This document shows, in pieces, positions 1 through 9,916 of a stretch of DNA of 9,916 nt. How positions within the stretch are numbered: the first letter of the stretch is position 1; every line of letters starts with the position of its first letter. Source of the DNA: JBFJWU01 sp041623475 [NCBI: bacterium] (lineage in GTDB: Bacteria > J088); contig JBFJWU010000103.1 of assembly GCA_041623475.1 (NCBI GenBank), positions 1 to 9,916 of the forward strand, read 5' to 3'. The notes under the pieces were generated by a model. It made no database searches. It saw only the letters and a list, made by a program, of their open reading frames with translations, and had not been told where the DNA came from. The position numbers and the translations under genes are program-made.

Positions 1-1148
1 ATCAGGCCCAGCAGCAACGGCACTGACATTGTTGTCATGAATGCCATCAGGACCAGAATCGAAAATACTTCCTGGGTGATCAGCCCCATGGACAATCCAA
101 TTTCGGCAACGATGACCTCAACGGCGCCGCGGCCATTCATCCCGGCCCCGACGGCAACGCCCTCGCGCCAACCGTTACCGCTGGGCAGATAGAACAGTGC
201 TGTGCCGACGATCTTGCCAACGGTTGCCAGGGCGACCACCGCTGCAAACAGCGCGGTGTCTGTCCAAATCACATCCAAAGATACATGAAAACCTGCAGTT
301 ACGAAAAAGATCGGGGCCAGGAATCCGACAGACAGGTCATGGACGACCTCGGTCAGTTCGTGTGACCACTTGCGCTGTACGATCCCTTCTTGCAGGAACA
401 GCCCCGCGATGAATGCGCCGAGGATACCGTGCAGGCCAGCCAGGTGGGCCAGTTCGCCAAAAATCAACGCAACAAGGACAACCAGAGTAAAATTGGCCGT
501 GCGTTTGTCGACGCCGATCGTGTCCAGCCGCGCCCCCAGCCAGGGAAATACACGCAGGCCCAGGGTCCCGGCGACGCCGAAAAACAGGATCGCTTTTCCA
601 GCGGTCAGGCTGATTTCGACAGCGTCAAAGCTGCCGGTGGACGCGAAACCCATGATCGCCGCGAACAGGACGAGCGCCAGCGTGTCGGCAAACAGGGCAC
701 CAACCAGCATGACGCTGGATATCCGGGTGCCGACCAGGTTCAGGTCGACAAGGATTCGCGATTTTGTGGCCAGGGACGTCACGCCCATCGCCATGCCCAT
801 AAACATCGCGGCGACCGGCGGATACCCGGCATACAGCATCAGGCCGATTCCCAGTCCAAAGGGCACAACGAATCCACCAATGGCGGCCAGCAAGCCAGCG
901 CCTGATGCCCGCAGTAGTTGACGTGGCTGGATTTCCATGCCGATGTACAGCATCAGCAGGTAGACACCGACCTCGGCCAGGACCTTGAGCGCGTCGCTGG
1001 GTTCCAGCCAACCCAGGATTGCCGGCCCCATGACCATGCCAACAGCAAGTTCCCCGAGAATTGCTGGAAGTCCGACGCGAACCGCCAGCAGGCCGGCAAC
1101 CCAGGCGGCACCGAGTACCATCAACAACTGCACAAAATCAAGGGTCAT
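1..1148 (-). CDS. CPA2/Kef-type cation:proton antiporter, C-terminus cut by window edge
   Basis: Integral inner-membrane protein expected to exchange K+ or Na+ for protons (CPA2 family, Na_H_Exchanger domain). The frame reads 382 codons from ATG at 1148 to the window edge with no stop, so the C-terminus, including any RCK/TrkA-N domain, is not visible. Almost the whole visible length is hydrophobic helices. Family hallmarks are VTSLATKSRIL (about 123-133), a single membrane Asp in FADTLAL (D155), HGILGAFIAGL (240-250), GKIVG with conserved Lys (K312), and the diagnostic GMNGRGAVEVI (336-346). The Asp is preceded by Ala, not by the Asp of electrogenic DD antiporters or the Gln of KefC, so ion and stoichiometry cannot be assigned. 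No Shine-Dalgarno is visible before 1148. The start was chosen as the first ATG giving a normal family N-terminus, and no other ATG lies closely upstream in frame. The gene is transcribed away from the solute-binding gene's 3' end, 177 bp apart. The family call is firm; the substrate is unknown. Confidence 0.93.
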   Translation of the reverse strand, partial: MTLDFVQLLMVLGAAWVAGLLAVRVGLPAILGELAVGMVMGPAILGWLEPSDALKVLAEVGVYLLMLYIGMEIQPRQLLRASGAGLLAAIGGFVVPFGLGIGLMLYAGYPPVAAMFMGMAMGVTSLATKSRILVDLNLVGTRISSVMLVGALFADTLALVLFAAIMGFASTGSFDAVEISLTAGKAILFFGVAGTLGLRVFPWLGARLDTIGVDKRTANFTLVVLVALIFGELAHLAGLHGILGAFIAGLFLQEGIVQRKWSHELTEVVHDLSVGFLAPIFFVTAGFHVSLDVIWTDTALFAAVVALATVGKIVGTALFYLPSGNGWREGVAVGAGMNGRGAVEVIVAEIGLSMGLITQEVFSILVLMAFMTTMSVPLLLGL

Positions 1149-1205
1149 AACTGTATTGTGCAGTATTTTGTGGTCTTGTTGCCGACGGTTCTCCGGGAAG
1201 GCGCG

Positions 1206-1234
1206 CAGTTCGAGGCGTTTCGTGCCTCGAACTG
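1206..1234. other. Perfect 11-bp stem-loop between two minus-strand genes
   Basis: CAGTTCGAGGC (1206-1216) and GCCTCGAACTG (1224-1234) are perfect inverted repeats around the 7-nt loop GTTTCGT. No T-run follows on either strand, so it is not a canonical intrinsic terminator. It lies 92 nt past the solute-binding gene stop and 57 nt before the antiporter start. It could be a transcript 3' end, an operator, or part of the antiporter leader. A second small perfect hairpin, CGAAAC-CTC-GTTTCG, follows at 1240-1254. Confidence 0.55.
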
Positions 1235-1325
1235 ACCAGCGAAACCTCGTTTCGATGGCGTCATCCAAAGACCGACTCGATGGCAGCGATCAAGGGCCAG
1301 TTGATCTGGACGCCGGACCGAATCC

Positions 1326-2184: not shown

Positions 2185-2952
2185 TCAGGCAGTGCCTTCG
2201 ATCTTGTGCATATTCTTCCAGATCAGATTGGGCATCCAACGTGCAGCACGGATCGCCCATTTCGCTTCCCCCGGAGTAATCCAGAAGTCGCCCTTGGCAA
2301 CACCTTTCTCGATCTCGTCCAGGATAAAACCGGGTTCAACCGGGCCCTTGCCCTCATCCATGACCTTTGGATTGGATTGCACCTGATTCAGCAATGGCGT
2401 ATTCACCATCGGCGGGCAGACGCAAAAGAAATCGACACCCGTGTGGCGATTCTCGTGGTACAGAATGTCAGCGTAGGATCGAACGGCAAATTTAGAGGCG
2501 CAGTACGCACCGAAATGCATAACAGGCATCCAGCCAACCAACGAAGCAAATATGATTTGTTGACCCTGGCCGCGCTTGATCATCTGCGGCAACGTTGCAT
2601 GGACAGTGTTCACGACACCATTGAAATTCACGTCCATTACCTTGACAGTCAGTTCCGGGCTCATGTCCATGATCAAGTCACTGGGCATGATCGCAGCTGC
2701 GGTCATGACGCGATCAATCTGCCCCAGATCAGATTCGATCTTACCCACGGAATCTTTTACGGCTTCCAGGTCCGTTACGTCACATACATAGGTGGTAACG
2801 TTTTCGCTGCTGGCTGCGGTCTTTTGCAGGCCTTCCTCGTTAACATCCAGGGCAGCAACCTTTTTGCCGGCCTTGGCCATTCGCTCGCAGGCCAACTGGC
2901 CCATTCCGCTGCCGCCACCAGTGACCAGTGCCACTTGTCCATCAAAACTCAT
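2185..2952 (-). CDS. Short-chain dehydrogenase/reductase (SDR)
   Basis: Cytosolic NAD(P)-dependent oxidoreductase of 255 aa, the usual length for classical SDRs, expected to interconvert a hydroxyl and a keto group. The Rossmann glycine motif is TGGGSGMG (11-18). Asp36 at the end of beta-2 (AALDV) suggests NAD(H) preference, and the D59-V60 pair (CDVTD) contacts adenine. The catalytic tetrad is visible as N109 (DVNFNG), S137 (FASLVG), Y150 and K154 (YCASK). The usual NNAG structural motif is replaced by TAAA (84-87). The start at 2952 is supported by GAGGAAAGGA about 7 nt upstream. It follows the saccharopine-dehydrogenase-like gene after 107 nt and precedes a strong terminator, so it is probably the last gene of the acyl-CoA synthetase operon. 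The substrate is unknown; the context favours a lipid, steroid or hydroxyacyl compound. Confidence 0.93.
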   Translation of the reverse strand: MSFDGQVALVTGGGSGMGQLACERMAKAGKKVAALDVNEEGLQKTAASSENVTTYVCDVTDLEAVKDSVGKIESDLGQIDRVMTAAAIMPSDLIMDMSPELTVKVMDVNFNGVVNTVHATLPQMIKRGQGQQIIFASLVGWMPVMHFGAYCASKFAVRSYADILYHENRHTGVDFFCVCPPMVNTPLLNQVQSNPKVMDEGKGPVEPGFILDEIEKGVAKGDFWITPGEAKWAIRAARWMPNLIWKNMHKIEGTA

Positions 2953-3059: not shown

Positions 3060-4151
3060 TCAATGTATGTGCCATTCGAGCCCGCGGAATTTCAACGCGT
3101 CCAGGAACGGTACGGGCTCCAGGGTTGCCCCGGTCGTGCAGACACCAGTCTGTCGACCACGACCGTCAGCCAGCCAGCAGGCACCAAGGGCCGCTACTTC
3201 GCCAGTTGTGTCATAAACATCGGGCCCGGAGATCGTCAGGTCGTGGATGTCGCCGGATTCGCCTGTCCCGCGAACGACCACCGTCCAGCGTGCGGCCGAC
3301 CGGGTTGCCTCGTCGGGATCGGGCATCGTCCGGCTGATCCGATCTTCCAGCCAGTGGACCAGCCGGTTGGTCATAATTCGCCGAAAGACCGGTTTCAATG
3401 CGCTAAATGCTGCAAATCCCCAGGCCTGTCCAGCCGGAAGTACCAGGTTGTTCGTCACCGATTGCAGGGTCGCGATCTCTGCCGGCAGCAGGATCGCGTC
3501 ACCGCCTGGAAAGGGTACACTACGCCGCACGTGCCGTTCCCCGGAAAACGTGACCTTGTCTGGACGCAGGGGGGCGGGCAGGGGGCCATAGGTACCGTCC
3601 CGATACTCATAAAAATCTTCGCTGACCATACCCAGCGCGCTGATCGCCGTCCCCCGGCTGGTTTTGTAGTCATCCAGCCAATGGTACGAATCCACAGCGG
3701 TCAAGGGCCCAAACCTGTCCTCGAGGATCCGCGCGCCACAATAGGCGAATGCGAAATCAACTGCCTGGCCTGTAATGACCGTGACATCGGCATCTTTGGC
3801 CCGCCGGTCAAATTGCTCATACGCGGCCTTCTGGAATGATTGTTCCGCGGTGGTATCGACGTAATGGGTGCCGGTCGAAATCGCAGCCTCGACAACAGGC
3901 AGACCATAACGTACAAACGGGCCGATTGTGTTGGCGACTGCGCCGCATCCGTCCATCGCGCTGGTCAAGCTGCCGGGTTCGGCCAGGTCAATCCTGCGAA
4001 CGTCCTGACAGTGACCGACCTGTTCAGCAAGTTCGGTTAATTGCTGAACATTGCGGCCGACCGCGAACCACGGGCGTCCGGAACGTGCCAGCGCACCAGC
4101 GACCAGCCGACCGGTGTAGCCATTGGCCCCGAATACGGCGACGGGTTCCAT
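3060..4151 (-). CDS. Saccharopine-dehydrogenase-like NAD(P)-binding reductase (trans-acting enoyl reductase type)
   Basis: Protein of 363 aa from the saccharopine dehydrogenase NADP-binding superfamily. In mycobacteria, relatives annotated as trans-acting enoyl reductases act on lipid intermediates; other relatives have no known substrate. The Rossmann motif VFGANGYTG is at residues 6-14. Further family signatures are NTIGPFVRYGLPVVEAA (74-90), a HYVDTTAEQ segment (97-104) and an ITGQAVDFAFAYCGA stretch (126-140). ATG 4149-4151 immediately follows the TGA of the acyl-CoA synthetase (TGAATG on the minus strand), so the two are almost certainly translationally coupled. The SDR follows after 107 nt. 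It is unlikely to be a true lysine-pathway saccharopine dehydrogenase, because the neighbours are lipid-type enzymes. The likely role is reduction of an acyl or steroid-type intermediate in the same pathway. The fold call is strong; the reaction is inferred. Confidence 0.88.
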   Translation of the reverse strand: MEPVAVFGANGYTGRLVAGALARSGRPWFAVGRNVQQLTELAEQVGHCQDVRRIDLAEPGSLTSAMDGCGAVANTIGPFVRYGLPVVEAAISTGTHYVDTTAEQSFQKAAYEQFDRRAKDADVTVITGQAVDFAFAYCGARILEDRFGPLTAVDSYHWLDDYKTSRGTAISALGMVSEDFYEYRDGTYGPLPAPLRPDKVTFSGERHVRRSVPFPGGDAILLPAEIATLQSVTNNLVLPAGQAWGFAAFSALKPVFRRIMTNRLVHWLEDRISRTMPDPDEATRSAARWTVVVRGTGESGDIHDLTISGPDVYDTTGEVAALGACWLADGRGRQTGVCTTGATLEPVPFLDALKFRGLEWHIH

Positions 4152-5720
4152 TCAGATCGCCCGGTCGCGGCCTTCCCAATATGGATCCCGGAGTTTGCGC
4201 TTCATCAGTTTGCCATTTGCCTCACGTGGCAGTTGGTCTACAAAGTCAATGGTCCGGGGCATCTTGTATTTGGCAATCCGATCCTGACAAAACGCCATGA
4301 TCTCATTGCGCGTATCTTCGTCGTCGGCGACACCAGGAACCAGTTCAACCACCGCCTTCACCTCTTCTCCCCAGTCATCGTGGGGAATTCCGAAGACAGC
4401 GACGTCCTGGACCTTGTCGTGCAGGATCATTTCACATTCGATTTCTGCAGGATAAATGTTGACGCCGCCTGAAATAATCATGTCGGATTTCCGGTCACAG
4501 AGAAACAGGAAACCGTCCTCGTCCAGATAACCGGCATCGCCGACCGTAAAATAGTCGTCCTGCCAGGCTTTGCTGGTCTTTTCCTTGTCGCCGTGGTATT
4601 CGAACTTCATCCCGTCCATATACATATAGACTGTGCCGATCTCTGTTGGCGGCAATTCATTGCCGTCGTCATCGCAGATCTTGATTTTGGATATCGGCCA
4701 GGGATTTCCGACCGTTCCGGGTTTCTTCAGCCAGTCGTGCGGTGTTGCCAGTGTGCCGCCGCCTTCGGTGGCCCCATAGTATTCGTAGATAACCGGTCCC
4801 CACCAGTCCATCATCTGCTGCTTGACGGGAACGGGGCAGGGGGCGGCACTGTGGATCATGTTGCGTACCGACGAAACGTCGTACTTGCCGCGTACGTCCT
4901 CGGGAAGCTGCAGCATGCGCGAAAACATCGTCGGAACCATGTGCGAATGGGTTACTTTGTACCGGTCAATCATCTCCAGGCAGCCCTCAGGGGTCCATTT
5001 ATCCATCAGGACGACGGTGTGACCGAAGTTCAGTGAGCTTTGGGAAAAACTGGTTACGGCCGTGTGATAAAGCGGTGCAACAACCAGATGAACGTTGTCG
5101 CCCTGGGGCATGATCCCGAACAGCATCAGGAACATTCCGAGTTGTCCGCCCTGGTCATCAGGGTTTGCGCCTGTCAGTGGTCTGCGAACCCCTTTCGGCT
5201 TGCCAGTGGTGCCGGATGTATAGGTCATGACTGCGCCCGCCTGCCGATCTGACGGCTCGTCTGCGGGAAACGCCGCGATCCAGTCTGCGAACGGTTGAAA
5301 ACCCCCGGCCTGGCCAAACACATAGCGTCGGTCGGATGGAAAATCCAGCTTGTCTGCCGCCTCGGTGCCTTCGGATGTAAATCGTTCGGAAACAAAAAAC
5401 GCTTTTGCACCGCAATCCCCCAGGATGTACGACGCTTCGTGCGGGGTCAGGTGCCAGTTGATCGGCGTGATGTAAATTCCACTTTGCAAACAGGCCAGCG
5501 TGGTCGTAACCATATCGATGACGTTGTGGGATAACAGGGCGATCGTGTCGCCCGCAGAAACACCGATATCCCGCAAGGCTCTGGTGGTCTGGTTGGTTCG
5601 CGCCGCCAGGTCTCCGAAGGTGATGGAATCGCCATGCTCGTCGACGATGGCGATCTTGTCCGGGTCGGCTGCAGCCATTCGCCAGAATCCCAGCGGTGGC
5701 AGGTCAGGCATCTGGTCCAT
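4152..5720 (-). CDS. Acyl-CoA synthetase (AMP-forming, FadD-like)
   Basis: Adenylate-forming ligase of 522 aa that should activate a carboxylic acid to its acyl-AMP and then acyl-CoA. Motifs numbered from the chosen start: ATP-binding P-loop TYTSGTTGKPKG (166-177), acyl/adenine-binding YYGATEGGG (314-322), the GDAGYLDEDG segment with its conserved Asp (394-403), hinge and A8 region DRKSDMIISGGVNIYP (409-424), and the C-terminal catalytic Lys in EANGKLMKRKL (K504). All core residues are present, so it should be active. ATG 5720 was chosen because GGAG lies 9 nt upstream (5730-5733). ATG 5735 and TTG 5744 are in frame but lack a ribosome-binding site. The N-terminus DLPPLGFWRMAA leads straight into the family fold. 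It is the first gene of the operon, with a KstR-like palindrome upstream. The substrate class (fatty acid, steroid side chain or other) cannot be read from the sequence. Confidence 0.94.
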   Translation of the reverse strand: MDQMPDLPPLGFWRMAAADPDKIAIVDEHGDSITFGDLAARTNQTTRALRDIGVSAGDTIALLSHNVIDMVTTTLACLQSGIYITPINWHLTPHEASYILGDCGAKAFFVSERFTSEGTEAADKLDFPSDRRYVFGQAGGFQPFADWIAAFPADEPSDRQAGAVMTYTSGTTGKPKGVRRPLTGANPDDQGGQLGMFLMLFGIMPQGDNVHLVVAPLYHTAVTSFSQSSLNFGHTVVLMDKWTPEGCLEMIDRYKVTHSHMVPTMFSRMLQLPEDVRGKYDVSSVRNMIHSAAPCPVPVKQQMMDWWGPVIYEYYGATEGGGTLATPHDWLKKPGTVGNPWPISKIKICDDDGNELPPTEIGTVYMYMDGMKFEYHGDKEKTSKAWQDDYFTVGDAGYLDEDGFLFLCDRKSDMIISGGVNIYPAEIECEMILHDKVQDVAVFGIPHDDWGEEVKAVVELVPGVADDEDTRNEIMAFCQDRIAKYKMPRTIDFVDQLPREANGKLMKRKLRDPYWEGRDRAI

Positions 5721-5798
5721 TGTCCAGGTCTCCATTTCGATCAATTAAAAGTGATGTGCCCCGGCGGGGCAATTCCGGTCCTTACTGAGCACACCGGA

Positions 5799-5814
5799 GT
5801 AGAACGTGTTCTAC
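5799..5814. promoter_or_regulatory. KstR-like TetR-family operator palindrome
   Basis: GTAGAACGTGTTCTAC is symmetric except for its central dinucleotide. On the minus strand it reads GTAGAACACGTTCTAC. It matches TnnAACnnGTTnnA, the published operator pattern of KstR, the TetR-family repressor of steroid catabolism in actinobacteria, at every fixed position. It lies 78 nt upstream of the acyl-CoA synthetase ATG and covers a plausible -10 box, the expected place for a repressor. The palindrome is seen; binding by a KstR-type protein is inferred. Another TetR-family lipid regulator with a similar site is possible. Confidence 0.72.
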
Positions 5815-5986: not shown

Positions 5987-6000
5987 TGGAACGTGTTGCA
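5987..6000. promoter_or_regulatory. Second, weaker match to the KstR-like operator pattern
   Basis: TGGAACGTGTTGCA fits TnnAACnnGTTnnA and shares the AACGTGTT core with the site at 5799-5814, but its outer arms are less symmetric. It lies between the yaiI stop and that unit's terminator, about 170 bp upstream of the main site. It may be an auxiliary site bound together with the main one, or chance. Confidence 0.3.
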
Positions 6001-6020: not shown

Positions 6021-6482
6021 TTATCTGAGTCGACGTGCCAGGAACGTGTCGAGGGCGTTGGCGAACGCCTGTTTGTCCCGTGGACCATATTCAGCCGGGC
6101 CCCCGAACTCGCCGCCGGCGTCCCGCATGTCGGCCATGAAATCGCGGACACTCAGCAGGCTGCCGATATTCTCGGTTGTATACAGTTCGCCCCGCGGATT
6201 CAAGCCGGTTGCCCCTTTCTTGACCACCAGATCAGCCAGCGGAATGTCGGCGGTAATAACCAGGTCGCCCGATTGTGCCAGCTCGACAATCCTGGCATCC
6301 GCGACATCGAAACCCTGGCCAACCTGAAGCGTCTTTAACCCGGGGATTTCCGGAATCGTCAAGTACTGGTTTGATACGAGCGTTACGGGAATCCTGCGCC
6401 GTTCGGCGACGCGATACAGCAATTCCTTGGCCAACCGGGGACATGCATCAGCGTCGACGAGAATCTGGAATTTGTCCGTCAC
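6021..6482 (-). CDS. yaiI: YaiI/YqxD (UPF0178, DUF188) family protein
   Basis: Protein of 153 aa, full length for the YaiI/YqxD family, which has a PIN-like fold and no established biochemical role. It is expected to be cytosolic. Family blocks appear in order: VDADACP (9-15), VSNQ (36-39), GFDVAD (58-63), DLVITADIPLA (73-83), NPRGELYT (95-102), RDFMADMR (113-120), GGP (127-129) and RDKQAFANAL (135-144). The acidic residues of VDADACP and the ITAD segment resemble a metal-binding nuclease site, but activity is unproven. The start is GTG 6482, preceded by an excellent GGAGG 8 nt upstream. It overlaps the stop of the CPxCG gene by 4 nt (GTGA), which points to translational coupling. It is the last gene of a three-gene unit with the GNAT gene. 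Identity is firm; function is unknown. Confidence 0.93.
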   Translation of the reverse strand: MTDKFQILVDADACPRLAKELLYRVAERRRIPVTLVSNQYLTIPEIPGLKTLQVGQGFDVADARIVELAQSGDLVITADIPLADLVVKKGATGLNPRGELYTTENIGSLLSVRDFMADMRDAGGEFGGPAEYGPRDKQAFANALDTFLARRLR

Positions 6483-7173: not shown

Positions 7174-7188
7174 TTGACGGGACGTGTT

Positions 7189-8161: not shown

Positions 8162-8189
8162 TATACATAAAAAAACAATAATGTATAAT
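8162..8189 (+). promoter_or_regulatory. Putative promoter of the TetR-DUF3604 operon
   Basis: TATACA (8162-8167, 4 of 6 matches), a 16-nt spacer and a perfect TATAAT (8184-8189) lie in a conspicuously AT-rich stretch (8118-8200) between GC-rich flanks. Transcription would start near 8196, so the mRNA would be nearly leaderless at ATG 8199. A second option is TTGATA (8144-8149) with CATAAA (8166-8171). Divergent minus-strand promoters for the 7947 gene probably lie here too, but I cannot pinpoint them. Confidence 0.5.
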
Positions 8190-8198
8190 AGATGCTCA

Positions 8199-8858
8199 AT
8201 GTTTGGACCACAGGTACATTTTCCACACCCGGCGGTTGACCCGCGGGCACGAAACCGACCCGGGCCCCAGGTCCAGCGGCAGCGTATCGTTGCCGCTGCC
8301 ATCGATGTCCTTGGTCGGCAAGCGGTCGAGGACACGACAGTTGCGGATATCATTGCGCAGGCGAGAATGTCCCGCGGTACGTTTTATCGTTGTTTTGACA
8401 GCCTGGAGTCTGTTCTGGACGAGATTTACGGTCTCTGGCACGCCGAACTGACCGGTGCAGTTGCCAGGGTTCTGGAAATGTATGATGATCCGCGTCAGAT
8501 GATTGTCTCGCGATTGGACGACGCGCTGTCAATGGCGGTCGAAGTCGGGCCGGTGTTACGCACACTGTATCGCGAGGAAATGCGGCCCGGCTCGCCATTT
8601 TTTGGCGCCCAGCAAGCACGCCAGCGCGCTCAGGCCGAGATGGTTGTCGTCTGGTGGCGAAAACGGTATGGCAATGACATCGACCCGGTTGCGGTACAGG
8701 TACTGATCATGTCGGTGCTGAAGATCGCCGTACACGTTTGCGACTCCGGAAACCTTCAACCCGGAGAACTGGACACGATCAAAACAGCCGCACGGGCGAT
8801 GTGCCTGGGTGCGCTGGAGTCCGTAATTTCGAGCGAACAACCCAGGGGGGATACGTGA
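8199..8858 (+). CDS. TetR/AcrR family transcriptional regulator
   Basis: DNA-binding repressor-type protein of 219 aa. The N-terminal TetR helix-turn-helix is evident: QRIVAAAIDVLGRQAVEDTT followed by VADIIAQARMSRGTFYRCF and DSLESVL, at about residues 28-73 from ATG 8199. The remainder is a helical ligand-binding and dimerisation domain with little sequence signature. ATG 8181 is in frame and adds six residues, but it lies upstream of the perfect TATAAT, and neither start has a ribosome-binding site; 8199 fits near-leaderless initiation. About 25 residues of proline/arginine-rich tail precede the HTH, longer than usual. The stop overlaps the DUF3604 GTG by 4 nt, so the two are co-translated. 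It may regulate this operon, the divergent acidic-protein/thioesterase unit, or both. No KstR-like site is seen at its own promoter. The effector is unknown. Confidence 0.9.
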   Translation: MFGPQVHFPHPAVDPRARNRPGPQVQRQRIVAAAIDVLGRQAVEDTTVADIIAQARMSRGTFYRCFDSLESVLDEIYGLWHAELTGAVARVLEMYDDPRQMIVSRLDDALSMAVEVGPVLRTLYREEMRPGSPFFGAQQARQRAQAEMVVVWWRKRYGNDIDPVAVQVLIMSVLKIAVHVCDSGNLQPGELDTIKTAARAMCLGALESVISSEQPRGDT

Positions 8859-9916
8859 ATATTCCAAAAATAATCCCGATGGCCGTGGTGATTGCCATCG
8901 TCGCCGGCTCTACCGCTGTCGGGCAGGAGGTCAAGCGCGACAAACAGATCTATTTTGGAGATCTGCATACCCATACCAATCTGAGTGCCGATGCCGTTGT
9001 CATGCAGCTGGCCCACGGCGTTGAACGCGGTCCCGAGGCTGCCTGCATGTACGCTGCTGCATGTGCACAGGTTGATTTTTACGGTCAGTCGGACCACGCG
9101 GAAATGACAGATATCGAAGACTGGCAGCGCATCCAGGCAGCCGTGACATCCTGCAATGAAATGGGTCGGACGCGGGCTGGCGAGGGTCAGGACCCGACGA
9201 TTGTCGCGTTTCAGGGATTCGAATGGACGTCGGGGATGCAGGATATCTACTGGGGACACAAGAATGTCTTCTTTCGCAGTGATGCCGTACCGGAATTGCC
9301 GATTGCGTCGGGCGCGATCGGGGAAATAGAGGCCCGCCGGCTGAAAGGCACGATGGTTGTCAACCGGCTGATGAAACCCCTTGAACCGACCTGGGGGCAG
9401 CGATGGCGCGCGTTCAAACGGGCAGTTGCCGTCAACGGGCGCGAACGCTGCGAAGGGATGGAAGTCGAACCTGGTTGTATCCGGGTCGCGAACGAACCCC
9501 GGGATCTGTTTGCCCTCCTGAACGGCTATTACGACCAGCCAGGATTTGTCGAAAACGGTTACGACACGATGGTCATTCCCCACGGGACGGCCTGGGGAAT
9601 GGCAAAGGTCGGCACCGACTGGGATATCCAACTGAATTCGGAACAGCACGATCCGTCATTTCAGACGCTGATCGAAGTCTACTCCGGGCATGGGAACAGC
9701 GAGGAGTACCGTGATTTCGAACGCGATGACAGCGGCTATCAATCCTGCGCAGACCGGGCCGCTGAACTGACCCGCGAATACTGTCAGCGCGAAGAAATCG
9801 ATGCAGGGGATTGCGACGAAGACATTGAACGGGCACTGGCGACCGGCCAGGTTGACTTTGACACGGTACCCGGGGACTGGGGCCACTGTGGGCAGTGCAC
9901 AGACTGCTATCAACCC
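8855..9916 (+). CDS. DUF3604 family protein (PHP-like), secreted; C-terminus cut by window edge
   Basis: Exported protein with 354 codons visible and no stop before the window edge; full-length family members are considerably longer. The N-terminus has a Sec-type signal (IIPMAVVIAIVAGSTAVG, with cleavage likely near Q24). Next come PHP-superfamily metal-binding elements: YFGDLHTHTNLSADA with H38 and H40, YGQSDHAE with D80 and H81, QGFEWT (120-125), VIPHGT with H243, and VYSGHGN with H279. Together these form a likely multinuclear metal site of a phosphoesterase-type hydrolase, but the activity of DUF3604 is not established. Cysteines are frequent, including CGQC near the edge, which fits disulfide formation in an oxidising compartment. 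The start is GTG 8855 with AGGGGGG 4 nt upstream, overlapping the TetR stop by 4 nt. It is the likely structural gene controlled by, and translated with, that regulator. Family call strong; substrate unknown. Confidence 0.9.
   Translation, partial: MNIPKIIPMAVVIAIVAGSTAVGQEVKRDKQIYFGDLHTHTNLSADAVVMQLAHGVERGPEAACMYAAACAQVDFYGQSDHAEMTDIEDWQRIQAAVTSCNEMGRTRAGEGQDPTIVAFQGFEWTSGMQDIYWGHKNVFFRSDAVPELPIASGAIGEIEARRLKGTMVVNRLMKPLEPTWGQRWRAFKRAVAVNGRERCEGMEVEPGCIRVANEPRDLFALLNGYYDQPGFVENGYDTMVIPHGTAWGMAKVGTDWDIQLNSEQHDPSFQTLIEVYSGHGNSEEYRDFERDDSGYQSCADRAAELTREYCQREEIDAGDCDEDIERALATGQVDFDTVPGDWGHCGQCTDCYQP

What the first reader, a model, noticed from the sequence alone, without database searches (positions are those of the whole stretch)
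5799..5814. KstR-type operator upstream of a lipid operon in an apparent proteobacterium
The palindrome GTAGAACGTGTTCTAC fits every fixed position of TnnAACnnGTTnnA, the known pattern of the actinobacterial steroid repressor KstR, and overlaps a plausible -10 box 78 nt before an acyl-CoA synthetase. The full 8-position pattern is expected only about once per 65 kb by chance, and this copy extends to a 16-bp palindrome. It suggests a KstR-like regulon in this organism and points to steroid or related lipid catabolism for the operon.
Basis: partly seen in the sequence, partly recalled or inferred. Interest (0 to 1): 0.62.

Follow-up and report, generated by a model that had tools for sequence, protein, structure and literature searches.

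The report
KstR-type operator before acyl-CoA synthetase
A short palindrome in front of a lipid-activating gene has the sequence of the switch that controls steroid breakdown in actinobacteria; the same switch, its repressor and steroid genes also occur together in Myxococcota, so this is probably a real control site, although the repressor itself could not be looked for in this organism.

Summary
The palindrome is real: GTAGAACGTGTTCTAC at 5799-5814 contains the TAGAAC-N2-GTTCTA operator of mycobacterial KstR, 78 nt before the likely ATG of an acyl-CoA synthetase (ACS). A weaker site lies at 5987. Beyond chance: 21 of 80 ACS relatives carry the box just upstream; 8 of 13 relatives' genomes (titled Myxococcota or Deltaproteobacteria, one Proteobacteria) hold more boxes than the reversed control, up to 61 against 5, while three Pseudomonadales do not; those eight encode one KstR homolog each, and proteins behind their boxes include KstD-, KshA-, P450-, EchA19- and FadD-type enzymes. 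One genome has box-kstR-kshA-aldehyde dehydrogenase followed by a relative (32%) of the window's second operon gene. A KstR homolog is present in 20 of 21 genomes whose ACS bears the box and 22 of 40 whose does not. Limits: the window's genome is not held, its lineage is unresolved, its nearest ACS relative (70%) lacks box and KstR, and 0 of 274 sampled Gammaproteobacteria have KstR. I read it as a KstR-family operator of a steroid- or isoprenoid-type operon; the regulator in this organism is inferred.

The parts
5799..5814 (.). KstR-type operator GTAGAAC-GT-GTTCTAC, 78 nt before the likely ACS start (ACS is on the minus strand)
5987..6000 (.). second, weaker match TGGAACGTGTTGCA in the same intergenic stretch
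   Evidence: matrix score 11.2 bits, 7 of 200 simulated windows reach it
4152..5720 (-). acyl-CoA synthetase (AMP-binding; nearest NCBIfam models PRK12406 and FadD4, both below their cut-offs); ATG at 5720 with GGAG 9 nt upstream; a longer TTG start at 5744 is possible
3060..4151 (-). saccharopine-dehydrogenase-like NADP-binding protein directly after the synthetase; a relative (32% over 370 aa) lies behind kstR and kshA in genome G010
2185..2952 (-). short-chain dehydrogenase, third gene of the presumed operon; best relatives in 12 genomes searched: 50% (G007) and 41% (G002), both with KstR homolog and boxes, but with no box in the stretches read around them

Best explanation
The palindrome at 5799-5814 is the operator of a KstR-family TetR repressor that controls the operon acyl-CoA synthetase - saccharopine-dehydrogenase-like protein - short-chain dehydrogenase. 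A KstR dimer bound there would block transcription, either at the promoter or as a roadblock just downstream of it; a CoA thioester of a steroid (or similar polycyclic isoprenoid) side-chain acid would release it, so that the ligase and two reductases are made only when such a substrate is present. Shown: the site, its match to the experimentally defined KstR operator, its recurrence before related synthetases, the co-occurrence of box, KstR homolog and steroid-type genes in other genomes. Inferred: that this organism has a KstR homolog, that it binds here, the ligand (by analogy with M. tuberculosis KstR, PMC6678751, passage), that the three genes are one operon, and the operon's substrate.
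For: TAGAAC-N2-GTTCTA is the palindrome of the mycobacterial kstR promoter (PMC1995591, abstract and passages). 21 of 80 ACS relatives have TRRAACNNGTTYYA (at most one mismatch) within -300..+60 of the ACS match; 23 of 63 hits lie in these 28,505 of 937,183 bases (binomial 3.7e-19, which takes related loci as independent). In a tree of 120 ACS rows all 21 box rows (20 loci and the window) fall in one part (88 rows), none among the other 32; 8 label changes against 19.7 shuffled, 0 of 500 as low. Box counts against reversed-pattern control: 61/5, 30/0, 27/0, 19/1, 17/1, 17/2, 16/1, 7/2 in G002, G010, G004, G006, G003, G009, G007, G005. NF033703 (KstR): one full-length match of 99-149 bits in each of G002-G010, the best other match in these being 56 bits. 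Box within 350 bp upstream of the kstR-like match in 5 of 9 loci (all exact) and 17 of 30 (6 exact); background about 0.04 per 350 bp. KstR homolog (>=80 bits) in 20 of 21 genomes whose ACS has the box, 22 of 40 without (one-sided Fisher 8.5e-4). Of 57 proteins encoded behind boxes: KstD-type 4, KshA_C 3, P450 3, EchA19 3, AMP-binding 4. Box-box-kstR-kshA-aldehyde dehydrogenase-SacDH relative in G010; box-kstR-kshA also in G003, G007, G002.
Against: The window's genome is not held, so no KstR gene, no second boxed operon and no ring-degradation gene of this organism was seen. Nearest ACS relative L001 (70%) has no box (best matrix score -6.9); its genome has no KstR homolog above 37 bits and hardly a box excess (5 against 3). 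KstR at E<=1e-15 in 0 of 274 Gammaproteobacteria. 59 of 80 ACS relatives lack a box directly upstream; of 20 ACS loci read from the phylum of G007 (54 matches in 48 genomes) only L127 has one, and that is the place already known as L021. Streptomyces genomes tested have KstR homologs but no box at this ACS. The SDR relatives L174/L225 and L175/L224 have no box in their stretches. G008 has a KstR homolog but no box excess (2 against 9).
Confidence: 0.72

Rival explanations
1. The site is an operator of a different TetR-type repressor of lipid or acyl-CoA breakdown that shares the AAC-N2-GTT core, in a lineage without KstR.
For: No KstR at E<=1e-15 in 274 sampled Gammaproteobacteria; of the groups sampled, window YaiI is nearest to Gammaproteobacteria (62%); the host of the closest ACS lacks KstR.
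Against: In relatives the box at this ACS co-occurs with a KstR homolog (20 of 21), and boxes stand before many of those kstR-like genes themselves; the window site scores like the Myxococcota-type sites.
Confidence: 0.15
2. The TetR-type regulator encoded in the window itself (8181-8858) binds the site.
For: It is the only TetR-type gene found among the window proteins scanned, 2.4 kb away.
Against: No KstR model hit at E<=1e-3, no TetR_C_20 domain; no site before its own gene (after 5798 and 5985 the best matrix score in the window is 1.3 bits, at 7176); only one weak relative (25%, G010) in 12 genomes; it is followed on the same strand by a DUF3604-like protein (name recalled).
Confidence: 0.06
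3. Chance palindrome without function.
Against: 0 of 200 simulated windows reach its matrix score; it stands before the gene family whose relatives carry the box far above background.
Confidence: 0.07

Closest known systems
KstR operator of Mycobacterium (TAGAAC-N2-GTTCTA, core TnnAACnnGTTnnA; PMC1995591, abstract and passages)
   Same: Identical 14-base palindrome; stands before lipid genes including fadD genes; in relatives the kstR-like genes often have the box before their own start.
   Different: Described from Actinobacteria; here in a lineage that is not clearly actinobacterial; sites in Myxococcota-type genomes often carry a TGAAAC half (TGAAACATGTTCTA).
KstR repressor (TetR family, NCBIfam NF033703; PDB 5cw8, 3mnl, 5aqc)
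   Same: The G003 protein L186:3673-4263 finds KstR entries as best solved structures (E 3.7e-15); the G010 homolog has the TetR_C_20 domain.
   Different: The homologs counted score 84-235 bits, below the family cut-off of 280: distant members; none was seen in the window.
KstR2 regulon (second steroid repressor of Actinobacteria; PMC6678751 and PMC8399759, passages)
   Same: Also TetR-type and steroid-linked.
   Different: Its operator was not looked up or tested here; one boxed gene (L189:3581-5152) passes the FadD3-family cut-off, and FadD3 belongs to KstR2 in mycobacteria (recalled), so the division of labour may differ.

Membership tests
KstR operator | Core TnnAACnnGTTnnA | tested here: met
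   motif from PMC1995591
KstR operator | Full palindrome TAGAAC-N2-GTTCTA | tested here: met
KstR operator | Intergenic, upstream of a lipid or steroid catabolic gene | tested here: met
   78 nt before an acyl-CoA synthetase
KstR operator | Overlap with the -10 region | tested here: inconclusive
   scan finds no promoter over the box; two weak candidates upstream
KstR operator | Box conserved before related genes | tested here: inconclusive
   21 of 80 relatives, far above background, but not the nearest one
KstR operator | KstR homolog in the same genome | not testable with these tools
   no genome held for the window; 20 of 21 genomes with the box at this ACS have one
KstR operator | Binding by the repressor and release by a steroid-CoA | not testable with these tools
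   needs a binding assay
KstR (window TetR 8181-8858) | Match to NF033703 | tested here: not met
   absent at E<=1e-3
KstR (homologs in relatives) | NF033703 over the curated cut-off of 280 bits | tested here: not met
   those counted score 84-235 bits: KstR-like, not annotated equivalogs
KstR (homologs in relatives) | Box before its own gene | tested here: met
   5 of 9 and 17 of 30 loci; not met in the other 17
KstR (homologs in relatives) | Boxed genes of steroid type | tested here: met
   KstD-type (below model cut-offs), KshA_C, P450, EchA19, FadD-type

The most novel reading that the evidence does not exclude
A KstR-controlled steroid (or related isoprenoid) regulon exists outside Actinobacteria: it is well developed in Myxococcota, with kstR under its own box and next to kshA, and has reached the lineage of this window, where it commands an acyl-CoA synthetase operon with a saccharopine-dehydrogenase-like enzyme as a new pathway member.
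Probability: 0.5. Interest if true: 0.6.

Novelty: new member of a known kind. Interest (0 to 1): 0.5.

Why it matters
[quoted passage not shown] Genomes examined here show the same operator, a KstR-like gene and KstD/KshA-type genes together in genomes titled Myxococcota or Deltaproteobacteria. That would make these uncultured bacteria likely aerobic steroid degraders with a predictable regulon, give a DNA motif that finds such genes in metagenomes, and raise the question of which way the regulon travelled. It also names a candidate new pathway enzyme family (the saccharopine-dehydrogenase-like protein).

Tried and rejected
Window genome: not held. Placing the organism: YaiI is nearest to sampled Gammaproteobacteria (62%), 58% in the class of G001 (3 genomes) and 51% in 140 genomes of the phylum of G007; the antiporter is 57% identical to one of G434 in that phylum but 31-35% in the gammaproteobacterial matches listed; the SDR is nearest to G007 (50%, 12 genomes); no decision. 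SacDH-like protein in 369 Gammaproteobacteria: three genomes at E<=1e-20, 26-30% identity. ACS in 398 Pseudomonadota: 30 genomes at E<=1e-120, only G026 in the close range (54%), with no box before it or in its genome. ACS in 282 genomes of the phylum of G007: 48 at E<=1e-150, 20 loci read, only L127 (the place of L021) with a box. Plasmid searches with YaiI, the DUF3604-like part and the SDR gave no placement. My own rough gene caller is wrong in places (it missed the kstR-kshA operon of L222), so the 22 'intragenic' of 76 boxes is unsure; in the four genomes with all boxes read, 44 of 68 boxes have a called gene start within 160 bp against 13% of random positions. No unboxed control set was scanned with Pfam or NCBIfam beside.

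Rows dropped: 5 of 62 first-gene proteins were left out of alignment A1 (L185:6290-6535, L204:3685-3948, L206:3137-3622, L206:8766-9113, L218:3-182; list checked). L127 was dropped from the tree as a duplicate of L021. Of 90 ACS relatives the tool kept the best 80. 19 of 59 boxless ACS genomes were not tested for KstR. The 21-of-80 count includes L060, which the slightly different window does not. Genomes compared are related to one another, so the binomial and Fisher figures are optimistic.

Full report
OBSERVATION. GTAGAACGTGTTCTAC is at 5799-5814. It is two 7-base arms around GT. The core pattern TnnAACnnGTTnnA has two matches in the window, the second at 5987-6000, both between the YaiI gene (6021-6482, minus) and the acyl-CoA synthetase (ACS, minus); shuffles give 0.15 on average. 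A sigma-70 scan found no promoter over the box and two weak ones 54 and 85 bp upstream of it, so the -10 overlap is not established.

GENES. Operon-like, all minus: ACS (AMP-binding; best NCBIfam models PRK12406 520 bits and FadD4 512 bits, both below cut-off), a saccharopine-dehydrogenase-like protein (SacDH) directly after it, and a short-chain dehydrogenase (SDR). The TetR-type gene at 8181-8858, plus strand, does not match the KstR model at E<=1e-3 and shows no TetR_C_20 domain.

KNOWN MOTIF. In Mycobacterium, KstR binds 29-bp probes with a 14-bp palindrome TAGAAC(N2)GTTCTA in its own promoter, core TnnAACnnGTTnnA; its regulon holds lipid genes including fadD8, fadD12, fadD17 and fadD19 (PMC1995591, abstract and passages). 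The window site contains that palindrome exactly.

RELATED SYNTHETASES. One scan of the collection of 84,980 species genomes with six peptide patterns gave 90 ACS relatives, of which 80 were kept. 21 of 80 have TRRAACNNGTTYYA with at most one mismatch within -300..+60 of the ACS match; 23 of all 63 hits lie in these 28,505 of 937,183 bases (binomial 3.7e-19). By title they are Actinomycetota, Myxococcota or Deltaproteobacteria, and one 'Proteobacteria' (L021, genome G007). In a 120-row tree all 21 box rows (20 loci and the window) lie in one part of 88 rows, none in the other 32; 8 changes against 19.7 shuffled, 0 of 500 as low. Some relatives counted as boxless have exact boxes farther upstream: L019 and L032 about 2.1 kb, L055 about 0.9 kb. 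In L265 (contig of L019) a MlaE-type permease and an SDR lie between the boxes and the ACS. The window's sister, L001 at 70%, has no box, and 19 further ACS loci from the phylum of G007 have none.

GENOME-WIDE. In 13 genomes the box was counted against the same pattern reversed: G002 61/5, G010 30/0, G004 27/0, G006 19/1, G003 17/1, G009 17/2, G007 16/1, G005 7/2; little or no excess in G001 5/3, G008 2/9, and Pseudomonadales G011 3/5, G012 1/7, G013 8/19. Four more genomes of the phylum of G007 have 9/1, 8/1, 7/0, 6/1; G026 of the Gammaproteobacteria 0/2.

REGULATOR. NCBIfam NF033703 (transcr_KstR) finds one full-length match of 99-149 bits in each of G002-G010; the best other match in these is 56 bits; the best in G011 and G001 are 55 (partial) and 37 bits. 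All are below the family cut-off of 280. The homolog of G003 finds KstR as best solved structure, E 3.7e-15. A box (at most one mismatch) lies within 350 bp upstream of the kstR-like match in 5 of 9 loci (all exact) and 17 of 30 (6 exact); background in all fetched loci about 0.04 per 350 bp. Several of the 17 are close kin (Streptomyces, Catenulispora). A homolog of 80 bits or more is in 20 of 21 genomes whose ACS bears the box (L024 is the exception; L004 is partial) and in 22 of 40 whose does not (one-sided Fisher 8.5e-4; 19 boxless genomes untested). These genomes are related to each other, so the test is optimistic. 0 of 274 Gammaproteobacteria have a homolog at E<=1e-15 (that call's own controls were empty, but the same model matched G002-G010).

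WHAT THE BOXES CONTROL. All 68 boxes of G003, G004, G005 and G009 were read, with 8 more in G010, G002 and G007. 44 of 68 have a called gene start within 160 bp; random positions 13%. Of 57 proteins encoded behind boxes, Pfam/NCBIfam give KstD-type 4 (those shown singly are below the model cut-offs), KshA_C 3, P450 3, EchA19 3, AMP-binding 4, enoyl-CoA hydratase 4, acyl-CoA dehydrogenase 3, TetR_C_20 3 (no unboxed control was scanned). One, L189:3581-5152, passes the FadD3-family cut-off (716 against 657). Box-kstR-kshA stands in G003, G007, G002 and G010. In G010 the order is box, box, kstR, kshA, aldehyde dehydrogenase, SacDH-like; that last protein is the best relative of the window's SacDH in the loci fetched by then (32% over 370 aa, 156 bits). 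In L002 a box lies between a reductase gene with the domain order of KshB (recalled) and an SDR.

SCORE OF THE SITE. With a matrix from the 68 sites the window site scores 22.7 bits (median of sites 24.9), 0 of 200 simulated windows reach it; the second site 11.2, 7 of 200.

ORGANISM. Not resolved: YaiI 62% to a sampled gammaproteobacterium, antiporter 57% to G434 of the phylum of G007, SDR 50% to G007, ACS 70% to an unclassified MAG. That the phylum of G007 is Myxococcota is inferred: G010 and G518 belong to it, and their records are labelled Myxococcota in the tree output or by title.

READING. The site is most likely a KstR-type operator. The link to steroids is strong for the relatives and inferred for the window. 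KstR outside Actinobacteria in print: KstR with Myxococc gave 3 papers, seen as a listing, none on this subject by title; KstR, Myxococcota, steroid degradation (two of three) gave 27, of which the 20 listed never hold Myxococcota; KstR with Proteobacteria terms, steroid catabolism with Deltaproteobacteria and KshA, cholesterol degradation with Myxococcota and a sponge query (no paper) showed no such report in the listings. This library is open-access only. [quoted passage not shown] Passages only were also seen of PMC4810484, PMC7593942 and PMC6678751.

Noticed in passing
window 5757-5771, minus strand: A terminator-like hairpin (TGCCCCGCCGGGGCA then CATCACTTTT) lies between the box and the ACS start, i.e. 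in its presumed leader; possible attenuator or leftover terminator.
   Followed up: no
window 8181-9916, plus strand: A TetR-type gene not of the KstR kind is directly followed on the same strand by a DUF3604-like protein (name recalled) that runs off the window; likely its own unit.
   Followed up: partly
window 3-1268, minus: The CPA2-type antiporter is 57% identical to one of G434 (phylum of G007) but 31-35% in the gammaproteobacterial matches listed, while YaiI points to Gammaproteobacteria: mixed ancestry or an unsampled lineage.
   Followed up: partly
L222/L270 (G010), L267 (G003), L268 (G007), L269 (G002): A recurring box-kstR-kshA gene pair, with KstD-type genes beside it in G003.
   Followed up: partly
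L265:2492-3325: A MlaE-type permease lies between boxes and an SDR and the ACS in G006, a possible counterpart of the Mce4 steroid importer (the Mce4 comparison is recalled).
   Followed up: no
Streptomyces loci L232, L233, L236, L240, L241: KstR-like genes of five Streptomyces genomes have a box-like site with TT/AA centre (TGAAACTTGTTCTA, TAGAACAAGTTACA) 225-250 bp upstream, although the Streptomyces ACS relatives have none.
   Followed up: no
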